A DNA stretch of 64,000 bases from Hyphomicrobiales bacterium (GTDB lineage Bacteria > Pseudomonadota > Alphaproteobacteria > Rhizobiales > Rhizobiaceae). Where the stretch lies: contig UEGR01000016.1 in assembly GCA_900465685.1 (NCBI GenBank), positions 1-64,000 on the forward strand. Direction: 5' to 3'. Shown piece after piece: positions 37,914-62,150 of this stretch. The position numbers and the translations under genes are program-made. Each line of letters starts with the position of its first letter. Position 1 is the stretch's first letter. The notes under the pieces are model-generated. The model made no database searches. It was given only the letters and a program-made list of their open reading frames with translations, and was not told where the DNA came from.

Positions 37914-38900
37914 TCAGACTGAAGAATTCATGAATTCCTCCGCAACTGAACGAATGCCTGCTCCGTCCAATTTATAATGCGCATAGAGATGCGTCGGTGG
38001 TGCAATGAGACTGTATTCGTCGTAGATTCCGTGACGTTTGAGTTTTACACCAGCGCCTTCGTCAGCCAAAACCTCGGCCACAGCCGCACCAAGCCCACCC
38101 AGAACGTTGTGTTCCTCCACGGTCATCATTCTCTTTGTGCGCAAGGCAGCAGAAAGTATAGCTTCCCGGTCGAGGGGTTTGATCGAAGCCATGTCGATCA
38201 CCCCGACAGAGCGGCCATTGGCATTCATTGCGCGGGCAGCTTCGAGCGCACCGTGAACCGCCATACCACAAGCAATGATCGTCAACTCTTCCCCTTGAAT
38301 GTGCTCATGAGCCTTACCGAAAACGAAGGGCGTATCCTTGTCGTAAACAACCGGATCTCGACCCCGGCCAATACGGAAATAGATCGGGCGATCATGATTG
38401 GCCGAGGCACGAATGGCTGCTTCCAACTGAGCACCGTCGGCTGGCGAGACGACGGAAAGATCGGCAATCGAGCGTGTCGTTGCTATATCTTCGGTCGCGT
38501 GGTGTGACGTCCCGTAAAAGCCAAGTGAAATGCCGGTGTGATGGCCAATCATTCGCACCGGTTGCGCAGAGTAAGCAACGTCCATGCGGATCTGCTCGCA
38601 GGCAAGCAACGCGATGAAAGACGCAAAAGTCGCAATGAAAGGTGTGACACCGCAGGTCGCAATGCCAGCTGCAACACTCACCATATTCTGTTCGGATATG
38701 CCGAAGGAAATGTATCGGTCAGGGTAAACCGAGGCGAACCGATTGAGGCCGTTCGAATATTGCAGATCGGCAGAACCCGCCACAACGTTATGTCCAGCCT
38801 TCACAAGATCAATCAGACCGTTCGAGAGATGATCAAGGCCGGGATTTGCTGCGTTCAAGCCACGATATTGCCAGGAATTAGGGGAAAGGGTGTGGCTCAT
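37914..38900 (-). CDS. transketolase-like enzyme, C-terminal subunit
   Basis: Protein of 328 aa that corresponds to the pyrimidine-binding and C-terminal domains of transketolase. ISFGISEQNMVSVAAGIATCG near residues 51-71 holds the Glu that activates thiamine diphosphate, and later MIGHHTGISLGFYGTSHHATED is the substrate-side loop, both read in parts. The N-terminal half is encoded just upstream with two bases between the genes. Split transketolases of this type belong to catabolic pathways (for example apulose-4-phosphate transketolase); the acceptor and donor are unknown here. It is the last gene of the 48.6-37.9 kb operon. Confidence 0.92.
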   Translation of the reverse strand: MSHTLSPNSWQYRGLNAANPGLDHLSNGLIDLVKAGHNVVAGSADLQYSNGLNRFASVYPDRYISFGISEQNMVSVAAGIATCGVTPFIATFASFIALLACEQIRMDVAYSAQPVRMIGHHTGISLGFYGTSHHATEDIATTRSIADLSVVSPADGAQLEAAIRASANHDRPIYFRIGRGRDPVVYDKDTPFVFGKAHEHIQGEELTIIACGMAVHGALEAARAMNANGRSVGVIDMASIKPLDREAILSAALRTKRMMTVEEHNVLGGLGAAVAEVLADEGAGVKLKRHGIYDEYSLIAPPTHLYAHYKLDGAGIRSVAEEFMNSSV

Positions 38901-38902
38901 GG

Positions 38903-39790
38903 TCAGATCTCCCGCGATTTGATTTCAGCAATGGCGGCTTCGGCATCCGAAGGATCGAGATAACCCAGATGCCAGCCCGGCTCGGTTTCCATATAGGAGA
39001 CGCCCTTGCCCTTCATGGTCTTGGCTATGATGCAGCAAGGAACCTGACGCAGGTCGTCGGCGCGCACGCGCCGTAGTAGCTCGGTCGTTACCGCCACGTC
39101 ATGTCCATCCACGACATGCACCTCCCAACCGAAAGCGCGCCATTTCTCGTCCAGCGGTTCGATACTCATGACGTCATCGACCTTGCCGTCGAGCTGATAT
39201 CCGTTCCGGTCGATGATGGCGATCAGATTACGAGCCTTGTGCTGGGCTGCGCTCATAGCAGCCTCCCATACCTGACCTTCCTGCATTTCCCCATCACCCA
39301 TCATGCAGAAGACCTTGTAGTCTTCCCCAGTCCAGCGTTGCGCCAAGACCATACCAAGCCCATTGGAAAGCGCATGACCGATTGAGCCGGACGAAAAATC
39401 CACGCCTGGAACCTTGCGCATATCGGGATGATCACCGAGCGGACTACCAAGACGGGTATAGTTGTCGAGCCAGTCCGTGGGGAAAAAGTCGAGATCCGCA
39501 TAGATCGGAAACAGTCCAACTGCTGCGTGACCCTTGCCAATTGTGAACCGGTCACGCGACGTCCAGTTCGGTTCGCCACGTCGAATACGCATCACATCGT
39601 AATAGAGTGCGGCGAATATCTCCGCCGCGGAGAATACCGACGTATAATGGCCCGTTTTCGCGATCTCGATGAGACGAACAGTTTCGAGACGAATAAACTG
39701 TGCACGCTCCTTGAGCATTGCAACGGTTTCATCTGACGGTTCGAAACTGTTCGGTTTGGGCACTCCGACCGTGCCAGTCGTCGAAACCAT
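38903..39790 (-). CDS. transketolase-like enzyme, N-terminal subunit
   Basis: Protein of 295 aa from the ATG at 39790, which has CAGGAG six bases upstream; a longer reading from 39979 is rejected. It carries the thiamine-diphosphate and metal motif GDGEMQEGQVWEAAMSAAQH near residues 147-166, then IDRNGYQLDG. GKGHAAVGLFPIYADL near 85-100 is also family-typical. It forms the active enzyme with the C-terminal subunit encoded immediately downstream. Its presence in an ABC importer operon points to sugar- or hydroxyketone-type carbon handling (inference). Confidence 0.92.
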   Translation of the reverse strand: MVSTTGTVGVPKPNSFEPSDETVAMLKERAQFIRLETVRLIEIAKTGHYTSVFSAAEIFAALYYDVMRIRRGEPNWTSRDRFTIGKGHAAVGLFPIYADLDFFPTDWLDNYTRLGSPLGDHPDMRKVPGVDFSSGSIGHALSNGLGMVLAQRWTGEDYKVFCMMGDGEMQEGQVWEAAMSAAQHKARNLIAIIDRNGYQLDGKVDDVMSIEPLDEKWRAFGWEVHVVDGHDVAVTTELLRRVRADDLRQVPCCIIAKTMKGKGVSYMETEPGWHLGYLDPSDAEAAIAEIKSREI

Positions 39791-39830
39791 TTTAAACTCC
39801 TGATTTGAATGATGGAAGTTAAGCAGACGC

Positions 39831-40919
39831 CTATGCGAAAGCGCGTGCGTCGCTATCGTTCCAACCGATAAGAATTGCGTCACCCGCCACCGGTCTGGTG
39901 GTGAAATCCAGAAGTGGCTTGCGAAGCACCATTGTCTGCCCGCCGCCAATGTCAACCAGCGCGCGCAAATGGTCGCCAAGGTAAGTCGTGTCCAAGATTG
40001 TTCCCTTGCACTGATTGGAGCGGCTCTGCGCCGCTGTGCCGATCACAAGATGCTCGGGCCTGACAGCTATTTTCACAGGCTTGCCAGCATCGGCAAAAGT
40101 GGAGGACAGGTCCGCCCGCACTGTTTGGCCACAGTCGAGGAGAATGGTTCCATAGCCTCGTTCATCGACACCTTCCGAATGTCCGGAGATGATATTGTTC
40201 TCACCAATAAAGCCCGCCACGAAAACATTCGCAGGCTGCTCATATAGCTCCTGCGGGCTAGCGATCTGAGTGACCGAACCGCGCTCGAAAATGGCAATGC
40301 GGTCGGACATGGCCAGTGCTTCAGTCTGATCGTGGGTGACATAGACCATCGTGACACCCAAATCCCGATGGATTTGCTTGATCTCATATTGCATATGTTC
40401 GCGCAGAGTCTTGTCGAGTGCGCCCAGCGGTTCATCCATCAGAACCAGGCTCGGCTCAAAGACGAGCGCGCGAGCAAGCGCAACACGCTGCTGCTGTCCG
40501 CCGGAAAGCTCACTCGGCCGACGGTTTTGCATTCCCTCCAGGCGAACCATCTCGACGGCCTTGTCCACCTTGACCTGTATTTCCCGTTTGCTCATCTTTC
40601 GCATGCGCAATGGATAAGCCAGATTCTGCGCTACGGTCATGTTGGGAAACAAAGCATAATTCTGAAAAACAACGCCAATGCCCCGGCGGTGGGGCGGCAA
40701 GTGTTCAATCGGCTTTCCCTTGACGAGAATATGACCACGGGTAGGCGTTTCGAAACCGGCAAGCATCATCAGCGTTGTGGTTTTACCAGAACCTGAACCG
40801 CCGAGAAGGGTTAGAAACTCGCCCTGCCTTACCGACAGGTTCAGGTTTTCGATGACTACGGTGCGTCCATCATAGGTTTTCTGCACGCCGACGAATTCAA
40901 CGATGTGTCCGGTTTCCAT
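39831..40919 (-). CDS. ABC transporter ATP-binding protein, spermidine/putrescine or Fe(III) type
   Basis: Protein of 362 aa. Walker A GGSGSGKTTTL near residues 36-46, signature LSGGQQQRVALARAL near 139-153, Walker B LVLMDEPLGALD near 158-169, and a C-terminal TOBE domain. It serves the importer of the receptor and permeases encoded upstream in the same operon. It is separated from them by the class IV aminotransferase gene, which suggests that the aminotransferase acts on the imported compound. Confidence 0.93.
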   Translation of the reverse strand: METGHIVEFVGVQKTYDGRTVVIENLNLSVRQGEFLTLLGGSGSGKTTTLMMLAGFETPTRGHILVKGKPIEHLPPHRRGIGVVFQNYALFPNMTVAQNLAYPLRMRKMSKREIQVKVDKAVEMVRLEGMQNRRPSELSGGQQQRVALARALVFEPSLVLMDEPLGALDKTLREHMQYEIKQIHRDLGVTMVYVTHDQTEALAMSDRIAIFERGSVTQIASPQELYEQPANVFVAGFIGENNIISGHSEGVDERGYGTILLDCGQTVRADLSSTFADAGKPVKIAVRPEHLVIGTAAQSRSNQCKGTILDTTYLGDHLRALVDIGGGQTMVLRKPLLDFTTRPVAGDAILIGWNDSDARAFA

Positions 40920-40990
40920 GAATGACCTTTCGTGCAGCTAGCGCGCATTTCCCGATTTCCCGTGTAGCCGGGAAACACTTTCTGCCGGGA

Positions 40991-41914
40991 TCAATCCCTG
41001 TACGGCACTTCGGTCGCGAGCCAACCGTCTTCCTGTTTCTGCCAGTATACGTCGTGCAATCGACGTGTTAACGGGCCGGGCGTGCCATCGCCGACTGTCT
41101 TGCCGTCGATTGTAGTCACAGGCATGATGCCACCAGCCGTACTGGTCATAAAGATTTCGTCGGCACCGAGAAGCTCTCCGATGGCAACTGGACGGACCTC
41201 GCAACGCAGTTGCAATTGCTCGCAGAGTTCCAGAACCGTGCGTCGGGTCATACCTTCGAAAACGCCACTCTCTGGTGTGCAGAGAACATTATCTTTGACA
41301 GCAAATACGTTAAAGCCTGCACCTTCGGTAACATTGCCATCCCCATCGCGCAGAACGGCCACGAAAGCATCTCTGTCGTACGCCTCGAAGATGCCCATGG
41401 TGAGGTCGAGCCAATGGAAGTTCTTGATGCGTGGGTCCACCGCCTGTGGTGCAATACGATGAACCGAGCTGACAACCATGGGAACGCCCTGCCGGCGCTG
41501 ATCGTCATTCGCAATCCAGACAAAAGGCGTTGCGAAAGCATAAAAGCGCTGGGTGCAAAGACGCGGATCACGGCTGCCAGCCGGTGGCATTCCACGTGTG
41601 CATGTCATCTGCACATAGGAGTCGCGCAAACCGCTCAAGCTGACGCATTCGATGAGGATTTCGGCGATTTGCTCATGCGTATAAGGCAGCGACATGCGAA
41701 GCCCACGCATGGACGCAAAAAACCGTTCGATATGGTCGTCAAGACGAAAGAAGCGTCCCTTCCACACATGAGCAACATCATAGGTCGCGTCGGAACGCAC
41801 GAAGCCCCGATCAAGAATTGGAATGCTGGCCTCGGCGACTGGCATATAGCGCCCGTCGATGAATGCAACGCCTGCCTGCGGGTTAGGAATGTGGACATCG
41901 GATTCTTTGGTCAT
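40991..41914 (-). CDS. fold-type IV aminotransferase, resembles (R)-selective amine transaminases
   Basis: Protein of 307 aa from the ATG at 41914, which has GGAAAGG upstream. The PLP-binding lysine is Lys164 in DPRIKNFHWLDL, and Glu197 in VTEGAGFNVF is the cofactor-contact Glu. The segment SDATYDVAHVWKGRFFRLDD at residues 41-60 is the hallmark of (R)-amine transaminases such as ATA-117, not of D-alanine or branched-chain aminotransferases; later TSTAGGIMPVTTIDGK agrees. It probably removes an amino group from a primary amine or amino compound taken up by the transporter and gives a ketone or aldehyde. The start lies two bases from the upstream permease stop. Confidence 0.88.
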   Translation of the reverse strand: MTKESDVHIPNPQAGVAFIDGRYMPVAEASIPILDRGFVRSDATYDVAHVWKGRFFRLDDHIERFFASMRGLRMSLPYTHEQIAEILIECVSLSGLRDSYVQMTCTRGMPPAGSRDPRLCTQRFYAFATPFVWIANDDQRRQGVPMVVSSVHRIAPQAVDPRIKNFHWLDLTMGIFEAYDRDAFVAVLRDGDGNVTEGAGFNVFAVKDNVLCTPESGVFEGMTRRTVLELCEQLQLRCEVRPVAIGELLGADEIFMTSTAGGIMPVTTIDGKTVGDGTPGPLTRRLHDVYWQKQEDGWLATEVPYRD

Positions 41915-41915
41915 G

Positions 41916-42728
41916 TTATGCCTTTCCGAGATTTCGTGCATTGCGGTTCACGAGGAACAGCGCGGTGATGAGGCTGAGGGTAGCGACGACCATGAGGAAC
42001 GTTGCCATGGCAAGGATGGACGGTTCGATATTATCGCGAAGCCCCTCGAACATTTTCAAGGGAAGTGTCCGTTGACCGGGACCGGCAAGGAAAAGGGTTA
42101 CGACGACTTCATCGAACGAAGTCATGAAAGCGAAGAGCGCTCCAGAGATGATACCCGGCGCAATGACCGGAACAAGTACAGTCATGAACCCTTTGAAAGG
42201 AGACGCGCCAAGACTTGCCGCAGCGCGGAGCAGCCCCATGTCGAAGCCTTGGAGCGTGGCCGTAACGGTGATCAGCACGAAAGGCGCGGACAGGACTGTA
42301 TGGGCGATGATAACGCCAGGCATGCTGGCGGTCAGACCAAACTTCGCCATCAGAAAGTACATTCCCAGCCCGCTGATGACAGGCGGAACAATCATCGGCG
42401 CGATGAGGAAACCGAGGATCGCGGTTGGCATAGGCAAGTCGCGACGGGCAAACGCATAAGCTGCAAGTGTGCCGAGAATGGTTGCGGCAACCGTCGACAC
42501 AGAACCGATGATCAGACTGTTCTTGAGTGATGAAAGCCATGGACCATTCGCAAACACACGCTCATACCACTGCAAGGAAAAGCCCGGTAGCGGATAGGAA
42601 AGAAAGCTGCCCGAACTGAAGGACAGGGGGACGATAGCAATGAGTGGAACGACCAGAAAGAGTATCATAGCCACACCAAAGCCGTAGTAGAGCGTCCGTA
42701 TGATCATTGCTTGACGATGATATGGCAT
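41916..42728 (-). CDS. ABC transporter permease, PotC type
   Basis: Protein of 270 aa from the ATG at 42728, with GAGG upstream; a longer reading inside the preceding gene is rejected. Six membrane helices begin at FGVAMILFLVVPLIAIVPLS. The cytoplasmic contact loop is AAASLGASPFKGFMTVLVPVI, seen in parts. Partner of the longer PotB-like permease encoded just upstream. Confidence 0.9.
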   Translation of the reverse strand: MPYHRQAMIIRTLYYGFGVAMILFLVVPLIAIVPLSFSSGSFLSYPLPGFSLQWYERVFANGPWLSSLKNSLIIGSVSTVAATILGTLAAYAFARRDLPMPTAILGFLIAPMIVPPVISGLGMYFLMAKFGLTASMPGVIIAHTVLSAPFVLITVTATLQGFDMGLLRAAASLGASPFKGFMTVLVPVIAPGIISGALFAFMTSFDEVVVTLFLAGPGQRTLPLKMFEGLRDNIEPSILAMATFLMVVATLSLITALFLVNRNARNLGKA

Positions 42729-42736
42729 TGGCGACC

Positions 42737-44002
42737 TCACTTTAGCCCCGCAAGCTGACGCACACCCACTGTGCGTGCGGCGAGCGCATAGACTGCAACG
42801 GTGCAAAGCAGCAGCACGATCCCAAGCGCAGAGGCCATGCCCCAATTGATGGTGGTATTGGCGAAGAAGGCTATGAAATAGCCGAGCATCTGGTCGCGCG
42901 CGCTGGCGACCAGTGATGGCGTAATATAATAGCCAGCCGTCACGATGAAGGTCAGCAACACACCCGCTCCGACACCCGGCAGCGTCATCGGCAAGTAGAC
43001 ATTGAGGAAGCCGCGAACCGGATGAGCGCCAAGAGAGGCTGACGCCCGCATGAAATGTGGGGGAATACCCTTCATCGTGGAGTAGAGAGGCAGGACCATG
43101 AAGGGCAGCATCATGTGGATCATGACGATATAAAGCCCGGTGGTGTTGAAGATCAGCTCCAGCGGCTGCCGGATCAGACCAAGCCAGCCAAACAGCGAAT
43201 TAACAAGCCCCTCGCGTTGAAGAAGAACTATCCAGGCAGAGGTACGCGCCAATAGCGATGTCCAGAACGGCAGCATCACAGCGATGATAAGCGCGATCGA
43301 CAGAAATCGCGGCGCGCTCACCATCAGATTGGCAAGCGGGTAGCCAAGCAGAGCGCAAACAAGCGTGACGATAGCAGCGGTCTTGAGCGTACGAAAGAGG
43401 ATATCGACATAAGTTCGTTGCTCTTCAGGTGCCTGTACCACCTTACCACCGTCATCAATGGCAAGATCGACTGCGGCAAGCATGTAGTAAGGCGTGACAG
43501 CAGGCGACGCACGTTTCATCGCGTGCCAGTAGGCTGGCTCTTCCCACCTCTTGTCGATTCCGGCCAGAAAACGGCGTGCCGCACCATCCGCAGTGATATC
43601 GTCTGGTAGTGTACGCAACTTGCGAACGGTGCTGGTGAGAAGCGTGCGATAGCCACTCTCCTCATAGTTCAAGCGCCGGGCAGCCTCAGCAACGAGATTG
43701 CGCGGAGCGCTGGCAATTTCCTGTACGAAAGTCGTGAAAACAACATCCGGCGGCAACTCCGCTGAATCCTTCGTCGTCCAGCGGGACAATTCAGCCACCG
43801 TTTCTGGTAGAGCCTGCGTCAGTTCGGCATTATCAATTGCCTTGTAGAGCATCATGCCGATCGGCAGCATGAATGTCACCAGCACATAGAATAGAAGCGG
43901 TGCCACAAGCATTAAGGACACAACACGCCGACGTCTGCCAGCTCGCCCCCATTCCCGGCGCGTTGCCTTGGTCGTAGCTGCGTCTTCATCGATCAAGGTC
44001 AT
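42737..44002 (-). CDS. ABC transporter permease, PotB type, with long periplasmic insertion
   Basis: Protein of 421 aa, longer than the usual 280-300. After the first membrane helix (RVVSLMLVAPLLFYVLVTFM) there is a hydrophilic insertion of about 150 residues before the rest of the permease core, a feature of some opine/polyamine-type permeases. The contact loop reads RASASLGAHPVRGFLNVYLP. The ATG at 44002 is preferred because AAGGAGG is only one base from an earlier ATG at 44011. It pairs with the PotC-like permease. Confidence 0.88.
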   Translation of the reverse strand: MTLIDEDAATTKATRREWGRAGRRRRVVSLMLVAPLLFYVLVTFMLPIGMMLYKAIDNAELTQALPETVAELSRWTTKDSAELPPDVVFTTFVQEIASAPRNLVAEAARRLNYEESGYRTLLTSTVRKLRTLPDDITADGAARRFLAGIDKRWEEPAYWHAMKRASPAVTPYYMLAAVDLAIDDGGKVVQAPEEQRTYVDILFRTLKTAAIVTLVCALLGYPLANLMVSAPRFLSIALIIAVMLPFWTSLLARTSAWIVLLQREGLVNSLFGWLGLIRQPLELIFNTTGLYIVMIHMMLPFMVLPLYSTMKGIPPHFMRASASLGAHPVRGFLNVYLPMTLPGVGAGVLLTFIVTAGYYITPSLVASARDQMLGYFIAFFANTTINWGMASALGIVLLLCTVAVYALAARTVGVRQLAGLK

Positions 44003-44073
44003 CGGAACCATGCCTCCTTAAACCATGCCGACCGGAAATCGGCCGGCATGGCCTTTAACACTATCCAGTCGGT

Positions 44074-45114
44074 TTACTGGGCAACCCAGCTGGCAAAGCG
44101 TTCCGCCAGTTCCTCACCGTGATCAATCCAGAATTCCGAGTTGAAACGCACCGCGTTTTTAAGATTGTCCGGAGCAGATGGGAGTTTTGCCAACCGGTCC
44201 GCAGGAAGGGCTTCCATGGCTTTGACGTTGCTGACACCGTAAGCGATATTGTTGGCAAAGGTTGTCTGCGGCTCTTTTGACATCATGAATTCGACGAGGG
44301 ACGTTGATTCATCCAGGTTTGGAGTTCCCTTCATGATAGCCCAGAATTCGGTTGAGTTGATCTGACCGTCCCAGACGATAGCAAAATCTTTCCCTTCCTT
44401 CTGGGCATTGTCGACGCGGCCGTTATAGGCTGTTGTCATGACGACATCGCCTGAAGAGAGCCATTCCTGCGGCTGGGCTCCACTCTCCCACCACTGGATA
44501 TGTGGCTTCAGTTGATCGAGCTTGGCGAAGGCTCTGTCCTGACCTTCCTTCGTTGCAATCACGCTATAGACTTCCGATGGCGGCACGCCGTCTGCCATCA
44601 AGGCTACTTCCATGGTCAGTTTCGCAGTCTTACGCAAACCGCGCTTGCCCGGCCACTTTTCCACGTTCCAGAAATCGGCCCAGTTTTTCGGTCCATCCGT
44701 CAGCTTGGCCTTGTCATAGGTCAAAATGTTGGCCCAGCTCAGAGCGCCAACAGCGCATTCCTTGAACTGGCTGGGATCAATCTCATCGGCATGTGGTTTT
44801 TTCGACCAGTCGATATTTTCGAGAAGCCCCTGCTCGCACGCCATGGTGACTTCATCGTCCTCCATCTGCATAACGTCCCAGGTGACATTTCCCGCGTCAA
44901 CCATTGCCTTCTGCTTGGCTAGACCGCCATTGGTCGTGTCTTCGAGCACCTTGATGCCCTTTTCCTTGGCATAAGGCGTGAAATAGGCTTCACGAAACGC
45001 GTCTTGAATTGCGCCGCCGAAGCCAACAACAGTCAGATCGCGAGCATAGGCGCCAGAAAGGCATGCCGCAGTCACGATACCGGTTGCCAGAAGCATCTTC
45101 CCATATTTATGCAT
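44074..45114 (-). CDS. extracellular solute-binding protein, PotD type
   Basis: Protein of 346 aa with Sec signal peptide MHKYGKMLLATGIVTAACLSGAYA (ending SGAYA). The mature part reads DLTVVGFGGAIQDAFREAYF and contains TWDVMQMEDDEVTMACEQG and SSGDVVMTTAYNGRVDNAQ, a pattern of receptors for spermidine/putrescine and related ligands. It captures the compound for the importer and is the first transporter gene of the operon, 69 bases after the E2 gene. The ligand is not known. Confidence 0.9.
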   Translation of the reverse strand: MHKYGKMLLATGIVTAACLSGAYARDLTVVGFGGAIQDAFREAYFTPYAKEKGIKVLEDTTNGGLAKQKAMVDAGNVTWDVMQMEDDEVTMACEQGLLENIDWSKKPHADEIDPSQFKECAVGALSWANILTYDKAKLTDGPKNWADFWNVEKWPGKRGLRKTAKLTMEVALMADGVPPSEVYSVIATKEGQDRAFAKLDQLKPHIQWWESGAQPQEWLSSGDVVMTTAYNGRVDNAQKEGKDFAIVWDGQINSTEFWAIMKGTPNLDESTSLVEFMMSKEPQTTFANNIAYGVSNVKAMEALPADRLAKLPSAPDNLKNAVRFNSEFWIDHGEELAERFASWVAQ

Positions 45115-45183
45115 GTTCCTGTTCCTCTCTCTTTTATGATCATTGCTCGCCCTCTGTTTTTTCTTGTGGCGAGGTATTTCGCT

Positions 45184-46458
45184 TCAGACGAGAATTTGCA
45201 TCGGGTTCTGAAGCAGCTCCTTGAAACTGGACAACCATTGCGCGCCCAAAACGCCGTCTATTGCCCGATGATCGAGCGAAAGCGTCACGCGCATGACGCG
45301 GGCGTCAACGGCTATGCGCTCCCGAGACACAATCCGTTCTTCAATCGCGCCGACCGCGAGAATTGCGGCTTGCGGTGGATTGATAATGGCGGTGAAGTCA
45401 CTCACGCCGTACATGCCGAGATTGCTGATGGTGAACGAACCGCCACGATACTCATCCGGCTTCAGACCGCCATTGCGGGCTCTGAGTGCCAGATCGGAAA
45501 TCTCATCCGAAATTACGGACAGCGATTTCTTGCCTGCATCCTTGACCACCGGCGTGATCAATCCGCCATCCGTCGCCACCGCAACGCAAATATCCGTTCG
45601 TTGCAGGCTGAGGAGAGCGTCCTCCGTCCAGATAACATTGCAGGCAGGAACGCGGACGAATGCAGCAGCAGCTGCCTTGACCAGAAAATCCGTAACCGAA
45701 AGTCGCGCTTCTGCCGGACGCGCAGCATTGATCTGCTTTCGAAGTTCAAGCAGCGCATCGACAACGATTTCGGCATTCAGATAAAAATGTGGGATCGTTT
45801 GTTTGGACGCGCTCAAACGCTTTGCAATCGTCCGCCGCATGGCGGAATGCGGGATGGCAACATACGGGATCTCCACATCGTGTGATCGGAGAACAGATAC
45901 ATCGTCATTAACCACCGCCGTCTGCTGGGCAACGGGATTGGGAGTAGAAGAGGCCGAGCGTATCGTTGTACCGAAAGCCTCAACATCGCCGCGAAGAATA
46001 CGCCCGCGCGGTCCTGTCCCATTGATGTCAGAGAGTGAGATGCCCTTTTCGCCTGCAAGCCTGCGTGCAAGCGGGCTGGCGAATATGCGCCGGTTCAAAT
46101 CCCTGCCCGGCATTTCAGCCGTCGATACTGCTATTGCATCAGAGCCTACTGCTTCCCGTTGAACAAGTACCGTAGGAATGGAGGCTGAAAGCAGCTGTGC
46201 CACATCGGCTTCAGTCTCCCCTTCATCCGCGAGAATGCCGATCGGTGTCTCAACTGCTACTGTCGCTCCATCTCCATGCAATATGCGCGCAACACGTCCT
46301 GACTTGGGGCTTGGAATTTCGATGACAGCCTTGTCCGTCTCGATCTCGGCAAAGGCCTCGCCTGAGACAACAGCATCGCCCTCGACCTTCAACCACCGGG
46401 CAATGGTGCCGTCGCGCGCATTGGCCACAACGGATGGCATGACCAAAAACTCAGGCAT
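45184..46458 (-). CDS. dihydrolipoamide acyltransferase (E2) component
   Basis: Protein of 424 aa from the ATG at 46458; a longer reading inside the E1 gene is rejected. The lipoyl domain has its attachment lysine near residue 43 in EIETDKAVIEIPSPKSG, the E3-binding domain is RIFASPLARRLAGEKGISLS with GTGPRGRILRGDV, and the catalytic domain ends with the DHRAIDG motif. It transfers the acyl group from the E1 active site to CoA. The gene overlaps E1 by eight bases. No E3 (dihydrolipoamide dehydrogenase) is encoded in the window, so an external E3 must be shared. Confidence 0.94.
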   Translation of the reverse strand: MPEFLVMPSVVANARDGTIARWLKVEGDAVVSGEAFAEIETDKAVIEIPSPKSGRVARILHGDGATVAVETPIGILADEGETEADVAQLLSASIPTVLVQREAVGSDAIAVSTAEMPGRDLNRRIFASPLARRLAGEKGISLSDINGTGPRGRILRGDVEAFGTTIRSASSTPNPVAQQTAVVNDDVSVLRSHDVEIPYVAIPHSAMRRTIAKRLSASKQTIPHFYLNAEIVVDALLELRKQINAARPAEARLSVTDFLVKAAAAAFVRVPACNVIWTEDALLSLQRTDICVAVATDGGLITPVVKDAGKKSLSVISDEISDLALRARNGGLKPDEYRGGSFTISNLGMYGVSDFTAIINPPQAAILAVGAIEERIVSRERIAVDARVMRVTLSLDHRAIDGVLGAQWLSSFKELLQNPMQILV

Positions 46459-48625
46459 GGTGTCGCTCCGGCAGGGTTGCCAATGCAGCCGCAATCTCTT
46501 CTCGCCCTGCATAGGCAGCGCGTTCGAGAACTTTGGAGATCGACGGAGAAGCTTCGCGTCCGCTGACCCGCTCGACGGGGTGATCAAGCCAGTCGAACAA
46601 CCGACGCTGGATTTCATCGGAAAGCCATGCGCCATAAGAGGAACCGCGCGGCCCCTGCTCGACGATCATGACCATGTTGGTTTTCTTTACGCTTTCAGTG
46701 ATGGTTTCCCAATCGATGCTGGCACGATCGAGGCATCGCAGATCGATAACCTCGGCATCCAGACCTGCCTCCACCACCGCATCAAGCGTTGCCTGCACCA
46801 TAGCGGAGTAGGTCAGTATCGTAGCCGCGGACCCACTTCGGCGCACCGACGCTTTGCCAAATGGAATGAAGTAATCAAGATCTCCGACTGGAGCTGGCCC
46901 CATCGTCTGATAAAGATCAACATGCTCTATCACCAGAACTGGATCATTCGACGCCAGCGCTGTGTTCATCAGCCCGACATAGTCGAATGGCGTGGATGGC
47001 GCGATAATTCTCCAGCCTGGTGAGGTAGCGAAAATGCCGGCAGGGTCCATGGAATGCTGGGAACCATAACCTGTGCCAATCGCGATCTTCGTGCGCAGGA
47101 CAAGAGGGACGGCCATGTCACCACCAAACATGTGACGCGCCTTGCCGACCTGATTGAACACCTGATCGGCCGCGACCCACATGAAGTCCGGATACATGAA
47201 CTCGACAATCGGACGATACCGCCCATCCATCGCAAGTCCACCGCCCAAGCCCATGAACGCATTCTCACTGATCGGCGTTCCAAGAATGCGATCAGGATAC
47301 TTCGCCTTGAGACCACGCGTGGCGCCGTTGGTTCCACCTTTCAAGCGATGAATATCCTCGCCAAGGATGACGATGCCGTCGTCCTTCTCCATGCGCCGGT
47401 CCAGCACATCAGCAATGACGTCGACAAATTTGCGTTGTTCGATCCCGCCCGTGAAGTTCGATTTCTCGACATATTGCAGGTCCGACAATTCGGATCCATC
47501 ACTACGAATACCGACATCGCAGAAGTCCGGCTTCGGCCACAGCCCCGCCTTGATAACGCGGCGATTGTCCGCGCGATCCGTCAACTCTTCCGCCACGTCT
47601 TGCATGATCTGTTTGCAACGTGCTCTCAGCGCATCGATACCAGTCTGATCGACGAGGCCACGTGCCAGCATTTCTCGTGCTACCCGATCCAGCGGATCCT
47701 TAGCCCGCCAGCTTTCCTCTTCCTCTTTCGTGCGATAGCCAAAGGCAGAGCCCGGGAACGAACCGTTCTGGTGGAAGTAGCGGTAAACCTCGGCCTCAAT
47801 GATGGCTGGACCGTTTCCGGCGCGCATATGTGCAAGCGCCTCTTTCATTGCGAGATTGACCGCAAGCGGATCCATCCCGTCAACGTGCCAGGATGGAATG
47901 GCGAAGGCCTGTCCGCGCGCAGCCAAACGTGTTTCTGCCGTTGATTCTTCCAGACTGGTTGCGACCGCATAGCGGTTGTTCTCAATGAAGAAGCATAGAG
48001 GCAGACGCCAGGCCGCAGCGAGGTTCATCGTCTCCAATACCGAGCCGATATTCACCGCGCCGTCGCCAAAGTAACTTACCGCAACGGCATCCGAACCCGA
48101 CTGCTTGTGTGCGAAAGCAGCACCTGCCGCCAGCGGCACGCCACCGCCGACAATGGCATTGGTGCCCAGCGCGCCTGCGGCCTGCCATCGCAGGTGCATA
48201 GACCCACCGCGACCGCCACAGAACCCTTCGGCAAGCCCCATGATTTCGGCTAGAGAGCGGCGAAGAAGAGAACGGATTGAACCGTCAAATGCCATACCGA
48301 ACGGCAGACCATCGGGCGCGACAAAGTTCAAAGCCTTCGCGAGAAATTGATGATGTCCACGGTGAGAGCCGTTAATCTGATCATCTGCCCGGAGCGGCAA
48401 GATCGAGCCAACCGCGCCGCCCTCCTGACCAATAGATGAATGTGCCGGGCCGTGAACCAGCCCCTCATTTGCAAGTTCGAGGACGGCTTCTTCGAATGCG
48501 CGGATGAGATGAAGCGATGAGAGCATCGTTTCCAACCCGGCAGCGCCTTCCGCATCCCAATCCTTCTTGGTCGTGCCAAACTCTAGCCAGCGGGTGGAAC
48601 TCGATACGGTCTTCGTTTGCGGCAT
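46451..48625 (-). CDS. fused thiamine-dependent E1 (alpha-beta) of 2-oxo-acid or acetoin dehydrogenase type
   Basis: Protein of 724 aa from the ATG at 48625, which has GAGGAA upstream; an ATG at 48751 is possible. The alpha half carries HGPAHSSIGQEGGAVG and the thiamine-diphosphate motif GDGAVN at residues 187-192 with the downstream NN near 216. The beta half starts near residue 395 (FVDVIADVLDRRMEKDDGIVI in part) and contains GTPISENAFMGLGGGLAM and VLVIEHVDLYQ. Alpha and beta are usually separate proteins. It decarboxylates a 2-oxo acid or splits acetoin and loads the acyl group on E2. First gene of the operon that ends with the transketolase. Confidence 0.93.
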   Translation of the reverse strand: MPQTKTVSSSTRWLEFGTTKKDWDAEGAAGLETMLSSLHLIRAFEEAVLELANEGLVHGPAHSSIGQEGGAVGSILPLRADDQINGSHRGHHQFLAKALNFVAPDGLPFGMAFDGSIRSLLRRSLAEIMGLAEGFCGGRGGSMHLRWQAAGALGTNAIVGGGVPLAAGAAFAHKQSGSDAVAVSYFGDGAVNIGSVLETMNLAAAWRLPLCFFIENNRYAVATSLEESTAETRLAARGQAFAIPSWHVDGMDPLAVNLAMKEALAHMRAGNGPAIIEAEVYRYFHQNGSFPGSAFGYRTKEEEESWRAKDPLDRVAREMLARGLVDQTGIDALRARCKQIMQDVAEELTDRADNRRVIKAGLWPKPDFCDVGIRSDGSELSDLQYVEKSNFTGGIEQRKFVDVIADVLDRRMEKDDGIVILGEDIHRLKGGTNGATRGLKAKYPDRILGTPISENAFMGLGGGLAMDGRYRPIVEFMYPDFMWVAADQVFNQVGKARHMFGGDMAVPLVLRTKIAIGTGYGSQHSMDPAGIFATSPGWRIIAPSTPFDYVGLMNTALASNDPVLVIEHVDLYQTMGPAPVGDLDYFIPFGKASVRRSGSAATILTYSAMVQATLDAVVEAGLDAEVIDLRCLDRASIDWETITESVKKTNMVMIVEQGPRGSSYGAWLSDEIQRRLFDWLDHPVERVSGREASPSISKVLERAAYAGREEIAAALATLPERHHA

Positions 48626-48807
48626 TTCTTCCTCTACAGACAAAGCTCGGCCATCACCTGCGAGAGACTCGCAAGCGGCAGACAGTGGTCGGACATTACG
48701 CGCGATACCGGCGGTTTTGATGCTCTGAACAAGCCAGAGCGGTTCCCACATTTATTCTCGTTTTGTTAGTGCTAGGCTTTCACTTTCTTTGCGCGGTGTC
48801 AATCAAT

Positions 48808-48815
48808 TGTATCCA
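48808..48815. promoter_or_regulatory. Candidate GntR operator, TGTATCCA (first of a pair)
   Basis: Core TGTATCCA within AATTGTATCCATTGA, in the 292-base divergent space between E1 (minus) and the VOC gene (plus). Same core in reverse orientation is found at 48891 and at the TorT operon promoter (62059, 62121). Confidence 0.6.
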
Positions 48816-48890
48816 TTGAATCTTGAAATAAAGGATTTTCCGCAAATTTTGCCTCGACAAAGGCATTTTCACAATGAACTATGGTTTGAT

Positions 48891-48898
48891 TGGATACA
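48891..48898. promoter_or_regulatory. Candidate GntR operator, TGGATACA (second of a pair)
   Basis: Core TGGATACA within GATTGGATACATTGATG, 20 bases upstream of the VOC gene start. It shares ATTGGATACATT exactly with sites at 62059 and, in reverse complement, 62121. Confidence 0.65.
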
Positions 48899-48917
48899 TT
48901 GATGTGAGGGTGAGCGG

Positions 48918-49493
48918 ATGTCGAAGAGTAACTACAGCCATCAGGACAAAGCGTCTGCGCATGACATTGGCTTACCCGGCCTGCGAGGCACCGAGCATAT
49001 CGGTTTCACCGTCCCCAATCTGGCAGAGGCCGTGGATTTCTTCGTAAACGTCATTGGCTGCGAGCCATTTTATGAGCTTGGCCCTTTCTCGTCTGACGGA
49101 GAATGGATGCAGACAGCTCTCAACGTGCATCCGCGCGCCGTCATGAAGAAGCTACAGTTCTTGCGCTGCGGCAATGGCTCCAACTTCGAGATATTTGAGT
49201 ATTCATCACCGGACCAAAACTCGGTCCAGCCACGCAATAGCGACGTCGGGGGACACCACCTTGCCTTCTATGTCGACGATATTGATTCGGCTGTGCAGTA
49301 TTTGCGCATGCATGATGTCCGCATTCTCGGTGAGCCTGTCGTGCGGAAAGATGGTCCGAGTGCAGGGCAAACCTGGGTTTATTTCCTGACACCCTGGGGA
49401 ATGCAGCTCGAGCTCGTATCCTTCCCGAATGGCAAGGCCTATGAAAAAGGCCTGACGCGTCGCCTTTGGAGTCCGCTTGGCACGACGTCGTGA
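48918..49493 (+). CDS. VOC family (glyoxalase/dioxygenase fold) protein
   Basis: Protein of 191 aa. It contains the vicinal-oxygen-chelate core GTEHIGFTVPNLAEAVDFFVN near residues 23-43 and GGHHLAFYVDDIDSAVQYL near 110-128, with metal-ligand His residues at the beta-strand starts, and PSAGQTWVYFLTPWGMQLELV as the closing element, in parts. It could be a lyase, isomerase or dioxygenase; substrate unknown. It is divergent from the E1-E2 operon and shares the operator pair with it, so it probably handles an intermediate of the same pathway. Confidence 0.85.
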   Translation: MSKSNYSHQDKASAHDIGLPGLRGTEHIGFTVPNLAEAVDFFVNVIGCEPFYELGPFSSDGEWMQTALNVHPRAVMKKLQFLRCGNGSNFEIFEYSSPDQNSVQPRNSDVGGHHLAFYVDDIDSAVQYLRMHDVRILGEPVVRKDGPSAGQTWVYFLTPWGMQLELVSFPNGKAYEKGLTRRLWSPLGTTS

Positions 49494-50397: not shown

Positions 50398-51588
50398 ATG
50401 TATGATTATTGTCTGGTTGGCGGCGGCATAGTCGGCCTTGCCACGGCCCTCACCATTGTCCGGCAGGAGCCTTCAGCCCGCATTCTTGTGCTGGAGAAGG
50501 AAGAAGCTGTCGCGATGCATCAGACCGGCCATAATAGCGGTGTGATTCATGCTGGCATTTATTACCAGCCCGGAAGCTTCAAGGCAGAGCTTTGCCGCGC
50601 CGGCGAGCGCATGACGAAGCAATTCTGCGACGAGAACAACATTCCTTATCGTGTTCCCGGCAAGCTTGTCGTTGCGACCAACGATGTCGAAGTGCAACGC
50701 CTCGCCGCGCTTGAAACAAATGCGGCGGCGAACGGCATTACCTGCCGCCGCCTCAGCGGCGGTGAACTACACGAATTCGAACCCGCCGTGACGGGACTTG
50801 GCGCATTACTGGTCGAACAGAGCGGTATTGTTGATTATCGTGCGATCTGCCGCGCCATGGCCGATCTCATTCGCGCTGCTGGTGGCGATATCGAGTTCAA
50901 TGTCAGTGTCGACCGCATTGAAGAACGCAGTGATAGCGTGCGGGTTCATGCGGTCGGCAAAGTCTGGGAAAGCAGGCAGGTCATCGCCTGCGCCGGTCTG
51001 CAGGCTGACCGCCTTGCCCGGCGCTCCGGTGTTGATGTGGACTTCCAGATAGTGCCATTTCGTGGCGAATATTACGCCTTGCGACCTGAACTGAACAAAC
51101 TCGTCGAACGCATGATTTATCCGGTGCCAGACCCTTCAATGCCTTTTCTCGGCATTCACCTGACCCCAATGATCGACGGCAGCCTGACTGTTGGACCCAA
51201 TGCCGTTCTGGGCCTTTCGCGCGAGGGCTATCCAAAATTCTCGGCCAACTTGCGCGATATTGCGACCTATGCGGCCTTTCCGGGTTTCTGGAAGGTAATC
51301 ACCGCCCATCTCTCGTCCGGCCTGGAAGAGATGAAGGATAGCCTGTTCAAGAAGAGCTATCTGGAAAAGTGCCGGAAATATTGCCCATCCCTGCAGGAAA
51401 GCGACCTTCGGCCCTACCGGGCGGGCATAAGGGCACAAGCCGTTTCGAGAGACGGCAAGCTTATTCACGACTTCAAGTTCCACCAGACAAAACGTGTGCT
51501 GCATGTGTGCAATGCGCCGTCCCCAGCAGCCACGTCTGCCATACCTATCGGAAATCTGATCTTTCAACGCTTGCAAACAGGCAATTGA
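50398..51588 (+). CDS. lhgO: L-2-hydroxyglutarate oxidase/dehydrogenase family FAD protein
   Basis: Protein of 396 aa. The N-terminal FAD-binding motif is CLVGGGIVGLATAL near residues 5-18, followed by MHQTGHNSGVIHAGIYYQPG near 41-60, a segment diagnostic of the LhgO/L2HGDH family, and closing blocks YRAGIRAQAVSRDGKLIHDF and HVCNAPSPAATSAIPIG. It oxidises L-2-hydroxyglutarate, or a related 2-hydroxyacid, to the 2-oxo acid and passes electrons to the membrane or oxygen. Coupled with the aldehyde dehydrogenase gene 7 bases later. No CsiD (glutarate hydroxylase) gene is adjacent, so the usual glutarate pathway origin is not shown here. Confidence 0.9.
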   Translation: MYDYCLVGGGIVGLATALTIVRQEPSARILVLEKEEAVAMHQTGHNSGVIHAGIYYQPGSFKAELCRAGERMTKQFCDENNIPYRVPGKLVVATNDVEVQRLAALETNAAANGITCRRLSGGELHEFEPAVTGLGALLVEQSGIVDYRAICRAMADLIRAAGGDIEFNVSVDRIEERSDSVRVHAVGKVWESRQVIACAGLQADRLARRSGVDVDFQIVPFRGEYYALRPELNKLVERMIYPVPDPSMPFLGIHLTPMIDGSLTVGPNAVLGLSREGYPKFSANLRDIATYAAFPGFWKVITAHLSSGLEEMKDSLFKKSYLEKCRKYCPSLQESDLRPYRAGIRAQAVSRDGKLIHDFKFHQTKRVLHVCNAPSPAATSAIPIGNLIFQRLQTGN

Positions 51589-51595: not shown

Positions 51596-53044
51596 ATGAC
51601 CAATCCTCACTACCGCGACACCAAACTGTTCATCGATGGCAAATGGGTAGAAGGCGAAGGCGGCACGCCCATCGCCGTGCTCAATCCGGTCAATAATGAA
51701 ACCATCGGAACGGTTGGCGTCGCCTCGAAAGCCCAGCTTGAAGCGGCAGCGCTTGCCGCCGAACGCGGCTTCCACATCTGGCGCGATATGAGCGTCTTCG
51801 AGCGCTCAAATATTCTGCGCAAGGCCGCCACACTGCTGCGCGAGCGCGCCGAGGACGCTGCGCGTCTACTGACGCTCGAACAGGGCAAGCCACTTGCCGA
51901 AGCACTCGCGGAAATCAACGTCTCCGCCGATATTTTCGACTGGTTCGCCGAGGAAGCCCGGCGCGCTTACGGTCGCATCATCCCTGCGCGCGACCGTTTC
52001 GTTCGCCAGACAGTGTTCAAGACGCCGATCGGCCCAGTGGCTGCCTTCACACCGTGGAACTTCCCGGTTTCACAGACGGCCCGCAAACTGGGTGCGGCAC
52101 TTGCCGCCGGTTGCTCGCTTGTCGTCAAGCCTTCGGAAGACACTCCCGCTTCGCCCACTGTTCTGGCCGAAGTGCTGCATGAGGCTGGTCTTCCGGCGGG
52201 CGTCGTCAACTTCGTCTATGGCGTACCGGCCGACATATCGAGCTATTTGATCGCGCATCCGGCCATCCGCAAAGTCTCGTTTACCGGATCGGTGCCGGTC
52301 GGCAAGCACCTTGCCTCGCTGGCAGGTGCGCATATGAAACCCGCCACGATGGAACTAGGCGGCCATGCACCGGTTCTGGTCTTTGGTGACGCCGACATCG
52401 CGGCAGCAGCAACCACGATGGGTCGCTCGAAATTCCGCAATGCCGGTCAGGTCTGCGTCTCTCCGACCCGCTTCCTGATTGAGGACAAGGCTGTCGATCA
52501 GTTTGTCGACGTGTTTCTTGAGGAAGTCGGTCGCGTCAAGGTTGGCTCCGGTCTCGAAGCCGACAGCACCATGGGGCCGCTCGTTTCGCAACGTCGCGTG
52601 GAAGCAATTGAAGCGCTCGTGGCCGATGCCCGAGACAAGGGCGCCAATGTTGCTGCCGGTGGCAAACGCATCGGCAATTCCGGCAATTTCTATGAACCGA
52701 CGGTTCTGACGAATATCACGCGCGATATGAACATCATGAATGATGAGCCGTTTGGCCCAGTGGCACTGATCATTCCGTTCTCCGATGCGGAAGAAGCCTT
52801 TAGCGAAGCCAATCGCCTGCCATTCGGCCTTGCTTCTTATGCGTTCACGCAATCGGCAGCACGGATTGCCGAACTCGAACGCCGCGTCGAGGTTGGCATG
52901 CTGACCATCAACCACCTTGGTCTGGCTCTGCCGGAAGTGCCGTTCGGTGGCGTCAAGGACAGTGGCTATGGTTCCGAAGGCGGTAGCGAAGCTATCGAAC
53001 CTTATCTCACGACCAAATTCGTCACGGAACGACACGCGGTGTAA
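51596..53044 (+). CDS. NAD(P)-dependent aldehyde dehydrogenase, succinate-semialdehyde dehydrogenase-like
   Basis: Protein of 482 aa. Catalytic residues are all present: Asn155 in PWNFPVSQ, Glu253 in MELGGHAP and Cys287 in NAGQVCVSPTR; the nucleotide-binding FTGSVPVG lies near 229-236. The sequence type is that of the succinate-semialdehyde/2-oxoglutarate-semialdehyde dehydrogenase group (GabD-like). It oxidises a semialdehyde to the acid and is co-transcribed with lhgO. Together they could feed C4-C5 acids to the TCA cycle. A strong terminator follows. Confidence 0.93.
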   Translation: MTNPHYRDTKLFIDGKWVEGEGGTPIAVLNPVNNETIGTVGVASKAQLEAAALAAERGFHIWRDMSVFERSNILRKAATLLRERAEDAARLLTLEQGKPLAEALAEINVSADIFDWFAEEARRAYGRIIPARDRFVRQTVFKTPIGPVAAFTPWNFPVSQTARKLGAALAAGCSLVVKPSEDTPASPTVLAEVLHEAGLPAGVVNFVYGVPADISSYLIAHPAIRKVSFTGSVPVGKHLASLAGAHMKPATMELGGHAPVLVFGDADIAAAATTMGRSKFRNAGQVCVSPTRFLIEDKAVDQFVDVFLEEVGRVKVGSGLEADSTMGPLVSQRRVEAIEALVADARDKGANVAAGGKRIGNSGNFYEPTVLTNITRDMNIMNDEPFGPVALIIPFSDAEEAFSEANRLPFGLASYAFTQSAARIAELERRVEVGMLTINHLGLALPEVPFGGVKDSGYGSEGGSEAIEPYLTTKFVTERHAV

Positions 53045-61970: not shown

Positions 61971-62058
61971 TTTGCCCTCTGCGGTTGATTTTGTGAGGCG
62001 ATTTTGCCTTCTTTTATTCGTTAACGCTTATATAGAATGACCACCCTGTCAATGAAAT

Positions 62059-62128: not shown

Positions 62129-62150
62129 ATCACATTTTGATGCATGTTGC

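What the first reader, a model, noticed from the sequence alone, without database searches (positions are those of the whole stretch)
37914..48625. Operon combining fused E1, E2, polyamine-type ABC importer, (R)-amine-transaminase-like enzyme and split transketolase
Nine same-strand genes encode uptake, a fold-type IV amine transaminase, a two-subunit transketolase and a fused E1-E2 pair without E3. Two separate thiamine-diphosphate systems plus a transaminase in one importer operon does not match a catabolic pathway I can name. Seen: gene order, spacing, motifs. Inference: the imported solute is an amine, is transaminated to a ketone, aldehyde or 2-oxo acid, and its carbon is split by transketolase and/or oxidised to an acyl-CoA by E1-E2.
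Basis: partly seen in the sequence, partly recalled or inferred. Interest (0 to 1): 0.78.

Follow-up and report, generated by a model that had tools for sequence, protein, structure and literature searches.

The report
Amine-to-acyl-CoA catabolic island, substrate unknown
A soil bacterium carries a probably jointly controlled set of genes that appears to import an amine or lactam, strip its nitrogen and cut its carbon chain with vitamin-B1 enzymes, which may hint at what a class of industrially used transaminases does in nature.

Summary
The nine-gene operon is real and correctly read, but it is the left part of a larger island (37.9 to about 63.6 kb): a divergent operon (VOC, GntR, L-2-hydroxyglutarate-oxidase-like, aldehyde dehydrogenase) and a second import operon with a caprolactamase-like ATP-dependent lactamase, next to a class III omega-transaminase. 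From the TorT-like receptor to the PotA-type ATPase the order is collinear in O. quorumnocens; no transketolase lies beside it there or in Shinella lacus. One operator-like palindrome occurs four times in the window, all in the two key promoters, and marks corresponding promoters in several relatives. Best reading: lactam/amide opening, transamination to a ketone, then acetoin-dehydrogenase-like cleavage by fused E1 plus E2 to an acyl-CoA and an aldehyde. The split transketolase looks like an accessory; its subfamily has GFYGTSHH where canonical enzymes have GEDG, suggesting an unusual substrate. The substrate is not identified, no reaction is tested, and an aldehyde dehydrogenase was found beside only 12 of 36 E1 loci, so an ordinary 2-oxo acid dehydrogenase remains a live rival. 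New variant of a known kind; interesting because it gives (R)- and (S)-type amine transaminases a natural context.

The parts
37914..38900 (-). TKc, transketolase C-terminal subunit with GFYGTSHH signature
   Evidence: PF02779+PF02780; GFYGTSHH in 16 of 16 aligned transketolase-family rows; GEDG in human and Carboxydothermus enzymes
38903..39790 (-). TKn, transketolase N-terminal subunit
   Evidence: PF00456; closest solved 6yak split transketolase
39831..40919 (-). ABC importer ATPase, PotA type
   Evidence: TIGR01187 374.4 bits, cut-off 355.6
40991..41914 (-). Class IV (fold type IV) aminotransferase, amine-transaminase-like (AT4)
   Evidence: PF01063; best solved relatives are amine/omega-transaminases, E down to 6.7e-88
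41916..42728 (-). ABC permease, PotC-like (start chosen here)
42737..44011 (-). ABC permease, PotB/PotH-like
   Evidence: Pfam match 21.4 bits is below its cut-off 26.4
44074..45114 (-). Periplasmic solute receptor of the agropine/mannopine/GABA/polyamine receptor group
   Evidence: closest solved 4i1d, 6hly (agropine permease), 8jv1, 6dgv (GABA sensor), 5l9g (MotA), 4eq7
45184..46461 (-). E2 acyltransferase (lipoyl, E3-binding, catalytic domains)
   Evidence: ETDKA and HRAIDG motifs
46451..48625 (-). E1, alpha and beta domains in one chain
   Evidence: PF00676+PF02779+PF02780; clade of its own in the tree
48806..48900 (.). Two operator-like palindromes (48806-48817, 48889-48900) in the E1/VOC divergent promoter
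48918..49493 (+). VOC/glyoxalase-superfamily protein; H27, E91, H113, H114, E165 invariant
   Evidence: PF13669/PF00903
49539..50252 (+). GntR-family regulator (likely true start near 49596)
   Evidence: NCBIfam GntR-family hits below cut-offs
50398..51588 (+). L-2-hydroxyglutarate-oxidase-like FAD enzyme
   Evidence: NF008726 578.6 bits, cut-off 299
51596..53044 (+). Aldehyde dehydrogenase, succinate-semialdehyde type
   Evidence: PF00171; TIGR01780 473.3 bits, below cut-off 646.35
53335..55134 (-). HyuB, beta subunit of ATP-dependent lactamase family
   Evidence: best model caprolactamase beta NF050157, 275.1 bits, cut-off 1000
55148..57208 (-). HyuA, alpha subunit of ATP-dependent lactamase family
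   Evidence: best model caprolactamase alpha NF050156, 553.4 bits, cut-off 1000
57287..60791 (-). Second importer: two ribose-type permeases and ATPase
   Evidence: ORFs; RbsA-type hits for the ATPase, below cut-off; collinear in O. quorumnocens
60876..61970 (-). Periplasmic receptor of the TorT/RbsB group
   Evidence: NF008185 273.9 bits, cut-off 200
62057..62130 (.). Two operator-like palindromes (62057-62068, 62119-62130) upstream of the TorT-like gene
62195..63568 (-). Class III omega-transaminase (AT3), closest solved 5ghf
   Evidence: E 8.3e-219; NF004767 783.2 bits, cut-off 517
63768..64000 (+). Start of a second GntR-like regulator, divergent from AT3, running past the window end
   Evidence: L174 768-1463; name from its translation and from cluster c21, no family search

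Best explanation
A probably jointly controlled catabolic island for an amine that can also arrive as an amide or lactam. Steps, all inferred from gene content: (1) uptake by two ABC importers, one opine/polyamine-type and one TorT/ribose-type; (2) a caprolactamase-like HyuAB opens the cyclic form (some relatives have an amidase or an HDAC-type deacetylase near AT4 instead); (3) class IV and class III aminotransferases turn the amine into a ketone, or a terminal amine into an aldehyde; (4) the VOC protein, with a glyoxalase/epimerase-like set of conserved His and Glu, isomerises or epimerises the resulting alpha-hydroxyketone; (5) fused E1 plus E2, working like acetoin dehydrogenase with an E3 encoded elsewhere, cleaves it to an acyl-CoA plus an aldehyde; (6) the aldehyde dehydrogenase and the L-2-hydroxyacid oxidase lead the remainder into central metabolism. 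The split transketolase is an accessory that makes an equivalent cut on a hydroxymethyl ketone. A GntR regulator controls both operons through ATTGKATMCAAT-like operators. Shown: gene content, co-occurrence, shared operator-like sequences. Inferred: every reaction and the binding of GntR.
For: Seventeen genes from TorT to the PotA-type ATPase collinear in O. quorumnocens at 88-99% protein identity. The same parts together in Phaeobacter inhibens, which adds E3, and in L056, L057 and L069; TorT importer, HyuAB, AT4, transketolase but no E1 in M. huakuii. Four operator-like sites in the window, all in two promoters, against a mean of 0.43 and a maximum of 2 in 40 dinucleotide shuffles (pattern defined after seeing the sites); corresponding intergenic sites in L039, L040, L041, L043, L056, L057, L097, L099 (= L138) and the actinobacterium L116. 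Of 36 E1 loci examined, 14 have a class III or IV aminotransferase, 28 an aminotransferase or an SDR, 14 a VOC, 12 an aldehyde dehydrogenase. A second E1 clade sits with acetoin-type E2 in L137, L151 and L170, in two of these with both class III and class IV aminotransferases. VOC residues invariant in 15 of 15 aligned sequences.
Against: The fused E1 form their own clade, not one with acetoin E1, and the window E2 scores best with a PDH E2 model. An aldehyde dehydrogenase relative was found beside only 12 of 36 E1 loci and a VOC beside 14 of 36, although all 11 AT4-anchored E1 loci have VOC. 39 of 50 AT4 loci have no E1 in the stretch held. The first motif scan (TTGTATCCA, one mismatch) was not above chance (13 against 8.9; 11 of 100 shuffles reached 13), the repeat finder reported no inverted repeat in 48600-48940, and 17 of 28 related loci have no operator site. 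The same palindrome type marks another cluster with its own GntR in this genome, and a second GntR-like gene flanks the island. The VOC model is fair only (pLDDT 72.6, under 50 at 103-113, where one conserved His lies).
Confidence: 0.45

Rival explanations
1. E1-E2 is an ordinary 2-oxo acid dehydrogenase: the aminotransferases make a 2-oxo acid from an amino-acid-like solute and E1-E2 converts it to an acyl-CoA; the aldehyde dehydrogenase belongs to the lactam branch (omega-amino acid to dicarboxylate).
For: E1 and E2 match PDH-type models best; the class IV family includes branched-chain and D-amino acid enzymes; 24 of 36 E1 loci show no aldehyde dehydrogenase relative; lactamase-like pair, class III transaminase and semialdehyde-type dehydrogenase together resemble caprolactam-type degradation (pathway recalled).
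Against: In 8 E1 loci an aldehyde dehydrogenase stands beside E1 without an aminotransferase, where an aldehyde product makes more sense than CO2; the closest solved relatives of AT4 are amine transaminases.
Confidence: 0.32
2. Two unrelated pathways (a lactam island and an amine island) are neighbours and share an operator type by chance or common descent of their regulators.
For: Each half occurs without the other: L042 has AT4, AT3, TorT importer and HyuA without E1; L044 and L045 have AT4 and AT3 only; L048 and L085 have importer and AT4 only. A second GntR-like gene flanks the lactam half.
Against: Collinearity in O. quorumnocens (a close relative), joint occurrence in L056, L057, L069 and L109, and the same palindrome at both promoters, also between AT3 and TorT in L056 and L057.
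Confidence: 0.18
3. The transketolase is a standard sugar-phosphate enzyme recruited to recycle C2 units and has no special substrate.
For: ThDP motif, SEQN and GDHP are kept.
Against: GFYG instead of GEDG in 16 of 16 family rows; the genes sit in plasmid clusters with dehydrogenases, aldehyde dehydrogenases or aminotransferases and importers.
Confidence: 0.15

Closest known systems
Acetoin dehydrogenase complex (AcoABC)
   Same: ThDP E1 with alpha and beta parts plus lipoyl E2 (recalled: cleaves acetoin to acetyl-CoA and acetaldehyde); in this genome the best-scoring non-fused E1-alpha is the one beside an acetoin-type E2 (228 bits, against 180 and 77 for chains I take to be PDH and BCKDH)
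   Different: Alpha and beta fused; separate clade; E1-beta scores do not discriminate; accompanied by VOC, importer and aminotransferases
(R)-selective amine transaminases (fold type IV)
   Same: Best solved relatives
   Different: GFMHSD versus GFVRSD and AFVELIVTRG versus SYVQMTCTRG in the alignment with 4ce5, near what I recall as the substrate pocket; activity and enantiopreference untested
Class III omega-transaminase 5ghf (recalled as the Ochrobactrum anthropi enzyme)
   Same: Near-full-length match to 62195-63568, E 8.3e-219
   Different: Here next to a lactamase-like operon and ThDP enzymes
Caprolactam degradation (caprolactamase CapAB, transaminase, semialdehyde dehydrogenase; pathway recalled)
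   Same: Same enzyme kinds in and beside the right-hand operon
   Different: Far below the caprolactamase cut-offs; coupled to an E1-E2 operon
Two-subunit transketolase Rif15 (PMC6002545, abstract and passages seen) and the split transketolase of Carboxydothermus (6yaj/6yak)
   Same: Transketolase in two chains; Rif15 acts outside sugar-phosphate metabolism
   Different: GFYGTSHH signature (Carboxydothermus has GEDG; Rif15 sequence not compared), catabolic context

Membership tests
(R)-amine transaminase (fold type IV) | Class IV aminotransferase with closest relatives among amine transaminases | tested here: met
   PF01063; best hits 8zm7, 8xiy, 8x1f, 4ce5
(R)-amine transaminase (fold type IV) | Activity and (R)-preference on amines | not testable with these tools
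   Residues near the recalled substrate pocket differ from 4ce5
Acetoin dehydrogenase | E1 groups with acetoin E1 | tested here: not met
   Fused E1 form a separate clade on a long branch
Acetoin dehydrogenase | Paired with acetoin-type E2 | tested here: inconclusive
   Window E2 is PDH-type; relatives L137, L151, L170 sit with acetoin-type E2
Pyruvate dehydrogenase E1 | Passes a curated E1 model | tested here: not met
   252.7 against 393.85, 226.8 against 321, 220.5 against 454, 196.9 against 411.35
Transketolase | ThDP-binding N subunit, pyrimidine and C domains, Glu of SEQN | tested here: met
Transketolase | Canonical GEDG of the acceptor site | tested here: not met
   GFYG in 16 of 16 family rows; GEDG in 6yaj and human
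Polyamine importer PotABCD | Receptor passes the PotD or PotF model | tested here: not met
   41.2 against 582 and 25.6 against 636 bits
Caprolactamase CapAB | Passes the curated models | tested here: not met
   553.4 and 275.1 bits against 1000 each
Glyoxalase I/epimerase-type VOC | Two-His two-Glu metal site | tested here: inconclusive
   H27, E91, H113/H114 and E165 invariant in 15 of 15; that these are metal ligands is recalled family knowledge, and no metal or fold comparison was possible

The most novel reading that the evidence does not exclude
The island is an undescribed pathway for an N-acylated or lactam-forming 2-amino-1,3-diol (or similar vicinal amino alcohol). Transamination gives a 1,3-dihydroxy-2-ketone, and the same C-C bond is cut either by a new E1-E2 complex (to glycolyl-CoA plus an aldehyde) or by a new transketolase subfamily whose GEDG-to-GFYG change removes recognition of the next hydroxyl. 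This would be a natural role of these (R)- and (S)-type amine transaminases.
Probability: 0.16. Interest if true: 0.78.

Novelty: new variant of a known kind. Interest (0 to 1): 0.55.

Why it matters
Amine transaminases are widely used for chiral amine synthesis; the review I looked into (PMC7228992, passages only) describes their discovery by enrichment, homology and motif searches, and the passages I saw name no natural substrate. This island puts a class IV and a class III amine-transaminase-like enzyme with importers, a lactamase-like pair and C-C-cleaving ThDP enzymes under what looks like one operator, so a natural substrate becomes testable by ligand screening and induction. It also points to a fused-E1 clade and a transketolase subfamily with an altered acceptor site, both found in Proteobacteria and Actinobacteria, which could serve acyloin chemistry if the reading is right.

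Tried and rejected
The exact operon as the unit of conservation: rejected.

E1 and transketolase as strictly alternative modules: considered and dropped. Among the 50 AT4 loci, 7 have E1 only, 3 transketolase only and 4 both, but Paracoccus albus, Cupriavidus oxalaticus and the Phaeobacter inhibens plasmid (positions) carry both within 15 kb. They are separable and recurrently together.

Filing E1 under acetoin or pyruvate dehydrogenase by phylogeny: not possible (the split rows have long branches).

Chloramphenicol degradation as a match for amide plus 2-amino-1,3-diol plus aldehyde: search 74 and the one passage of PMC13400229 shown mention 4-nitrobenzaldehyde formation; transketolase, thiamine and aminotransferase do not occur in that text. 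Kept only as an analogy.

Literature on the cluster: searches returned no paper; 42 and 77 none that looked relevant from the listing; 60 and 74 only loosely related ones. The library is open-licence PMC only and the terms were few, so this is weak evidence.

A lost phosphate-binding Arg in TKc (recalled yeast R359) was dropped: the alignment there is ambiguous. L008, first taken for a canonical transketolase, looks like a DXS. A viral-contig scan with the VOC alignment found no relative.

How the counts were made. AT4 loci: one search gave 68; L103-L106 (25-44% identity) were left out, leaving 64, of which 50 exceed 15 kb; several are close relatives. E1 loci: 36 = 11 of 12 non-window places, the 11 further places, and 14 of the 29 plasmid records, chosen by me; L109, L110 and L175 were first fetched through AT4 and L176 through TKn; L138 and L139 come from contigs of the same length as those of L099 and L069 and are taken to be the same records. 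E1 companions were found by tblastn with named references (E up to 1e-12, 40% of length), so distant families are missed. Operator scan: 28 related loci chosen by me, 11 with a site; the two sites of L110 lie at other promoters (one just upstream of its GntR) and L175 has one site inside a permease gene.

Full report
Setting. The window is contig 15, bases 1-64000, of a 5.14-Mb assembly. Its class IV aminotransferase (AT4) is 99% identical to that of Brucella haematophila CCUG 38531, of the Brucella/Ochrobactrum group.

The observation. E1 carries alpha and beta domains in one chain; E2 is a separate gene; no E3 is encoded in the window.

The unit is larger. Divergently from E1 run a VOC protein, a GntR regulator, an L-2-hydroxyglutarate-oxidase-like protein (578.6 bits, cut-off 299) and a succinate-semialdehyde-type aldehyde dehydrogenase. 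Beyond them, on the minus strand, lie HyuB and HyuA (best model caprolactamase, below its cut-off), a ribose-type importer with a TorT-like receptor and a class III transaminase (AT3) whose closest solved relative is 5ghf (E 8.3e-219). In O. quorumnocens seventeen genes, from TorT through the importer, HyuA, HyuB, ALDH, LhgO, GntR, VOC, E1, E2, receptor, two permeases and AT4 to the ATPase, are collinear at 88-99% protein identity; the stretch fetched starts at TorT, so AT3 was not seen, and no transketolase follows within 18.8 kb. In M. huakuii transketolase, an aminotransferase, aldehyde dehydrogenase, AT4, SDR, TorT-type importer and HyuAB lie together without E1; in Phaeobacter inhibens lhgO, the TorT-type importer, HyuAB, AT4, VOC, E3, aldehyde dehydrogenase, E2 and fused E1 do.

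Shared control. Aligning the E1/VOC region with relatives showed a TGTATCCA-like element. A first scan for TTGTATCCA with one mismatch was not above chance in the window (13 matches, 8.9 expected) but had pairs at both promoters. Written afterwards as the palindrome ATTGKATMCAAT, it occurs four times in the window with at most one mismatch (mean 0.43, maximum 2 in 40 dinucleotide shuffles): 48806 and 48889 between E1 and VOC, 62057 and 62119 between AT3 and the TorT-like gene. Because the pattern was set after seeing these places, the relatives are the fairer test. There the sites fall between VOC and E1 (L039, L040, L041, L097, L099 = L138), between VOC and receptor and upstream of E1 (L043), between VOC and AT4, upstream of E1, and between AT3 and TorT (L056, L057), and between GntR and E1 in the actinobacterium L116 without mismatch. 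Of 28 loci scanned, 17 had none. The genome holds 19 such sites; the control pattern gave 10. Six lie in another cluster that has its own GntR. A second GntR-like gene flanks the island beyond AT3, so which regulator binds is open. The repeat finder reported no inverted repeat in 48600-48940 and the sigma-70 scan was at chance level.

Co-occurrence. AT4 relatives (E up to 1e-40) occur in 66 of 397 genomes of the order, fused-E1 relatives (E up to 1e-150) in 12 of 397, TKn relatives (E up to 1e-100) in 6 of 397, each count including the own genome. Among 50 AT4 loci with more than 15 kb, 11 have the fused E1, all 11 of these also VOC and 9 E2; 7 have both transketolase subunits (4 with E1, 3 without); 9 have AT3 at 42% identity or more; 12 have the receptor at 40% or more. 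Of 36 E1 loci, 14 have a class III or IV aminotransferase, 21 an SDR, 28 one or the other, 18 an E2, 14 a VOC, 12 an aldehyde dehydrogenase, 5 an E3 and 2 a transketolase within the stretch held. SDR genes are common, so that number is weak. A second E1 clade (about half identical to the window E1), one copy of which is in this genome (C11), sits with acetoin-type E2 (L137, L151, L170), acyl-CoA dehydrogenase and enoyl-CoA hydratase genes, or class III aminotransferases. In Cupriavidus oxalaticus an E1 module (SDR, E1, VOC, E2, E3, SDR, aldehyde dehydrogenase, AroE-like) and a transketolase module (AroE-like, glycerol-dehydrogenase-like, aldehyde dehydrogenase, TKn, TKc) lie side by side, each with its own dehydrogenases and aldehyde dehydrogenase.

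Mechanism. An enzyme that oxidises an alcohol or amine to a ketone upstream and an aldehyde dehydrogenase downstream are what acyloin cleavage needs: acetoin dehydrogenase gives acyl-CoA plus aldehyde, 2-oxo acid dehydrogenases acyl-CoA plus CO2 (established knowledge). The window has both kinds of enzyme, and in 8 E1 loci an aldehyde dehydrogenase stands beside E1 without an aminotransferase. This tips me towards an alpha-hydroxyketone, but two thirds of the E1 loci show no aldehyde dehydrogenase relative. Phylogeny is neutral: the fused E1 form a clade of their own; the best-scoring non-fused E1-alpha of this genome is the one beside an acetoin-type E2 (40%, 228 bits), E1-beta scores do not discriminate. 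The VOC protein keeps H27, E91, H113, H114 and E165 in all 15 aligned sequences, which fits the two-His two-Glu site that I recall for glyoxalase I and related isomerases rather than the two-His one-Glu site of extradiol dioxygenases; isomerising or epimerising an alpha-hydroxyketone is the inferred role. Its model has mean pLDDT 72.6, poor around H113.

The transketolase. All 16 aligned TKc rows carry GFYGTSHH where the human and Carboxydothermus enzymes have GEDG; the three other rows in that alignment are not transketolases and lack it. From memory, the Asp of that motif (yeast 477, E. coli 469) contacts the hydroxyl next to the scissile bond; a Tyr there suggests substrates without that hydroxyl. 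GDHP of TKn, recalled as the C1-hydroxyl side of the site, is kept in 16 of 16. A hydroxymethyl ketone lacking the next hydroxyl is what transamination of a 2-amino-1,3-diol would give. That is the bold reading, not a result. Rif15 (PMC6002545, abstract and passages) is a precedent for two-subunit transketolases outside sugar-phosphate metabolism.

The aminotransferases. AT4's best solved relatives are amine transaminases, with differences near the recalled substrate pocket. Several AT4 loci hold an amide-opening enzyme: an HDAC-type deacetylase cluster in 16 loci (family checked on one member), an amidase in L099, HyuA in L042, L069 and L083. Many AT4 loci show none of these. A 2020 review (PMC7228992, passages only) describes how such transaminases were found; the passages I saw give no natural substrate.

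Verdict. A real island whose parts recur together and which is probably co-regulated. Its logic can be stated with moderate confidence, its substrate cannot. The parts are of known kinds; the combination, the fused E1 with VOC and the GFYG transketolase are the unusual features.

Noticed in passing
window 20742-25636: Another polyamine-type importer with an SDR gene, next to a LuxR-type regulator at 25714-26559 (names from the translations).
   Followed up: no
L137 (own genome C11:211001-231000): Second fused E1 (47% identical) with acetoin-type E2, genes that look like acyl-CoA dehydrogenase, enoyl-CoA hydratase and 3-hydroxyacyl-CoA dehydrogenase, an AroE-like gene and a polyamine-type importer.
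   Followed up: partly
L132, L133, L135: Fused-E1 relatives beside CT_A_B carboxyltransferase-like genes, with a beta-keto acid cleavage enzyme and a HyuA-like gene in L132 and L133.
   Followed up: partly
L111, L112: AT4 paralogues (55% and 54% identical) next to Lrp-type regulators and glycine C-acetyltransferase in Ancylobacter and Rhizobium.
   Followed up: no
cluster c1: L053, L054, L068, L072-L077, L079, L080, L088, L093, L094, L099, L100: HDAC-family deacetylase in 16 AT4 loci, mostly Acetobacteraceae; only L093, L099 (E1), L094 (VOC) and L073 (transketolase) of these also hold the ThDP-pathway genes.
   Followed up: partly
L041 12139-13347: Shinella lacus has a class III aminotransferase-like gene where the window has the transketolase genes.
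   Followed up: partly
L172 (own genome C26:14001-34000): Another cluster with a GntR (35% identical) carrying six sites of the same palindrome type.
   Followed up: partly
L097: In Brucella cytisi LMG 22713 several island genes are split over frames (decay or assembly error).
   Followed up: no
L119, L148, L149, L168: Conserved plasmid cluster of split transketolase, two aminotransferases, SDR, amidase, GntR and polyamine-type importer (with aldehyde dehydrogenase in L119 and L148) in Agrobacterium, Phaeobacter, Pararhizobium and Shinella; no class IV aminotransferase annotated in the stretch.
   Followed up: partly
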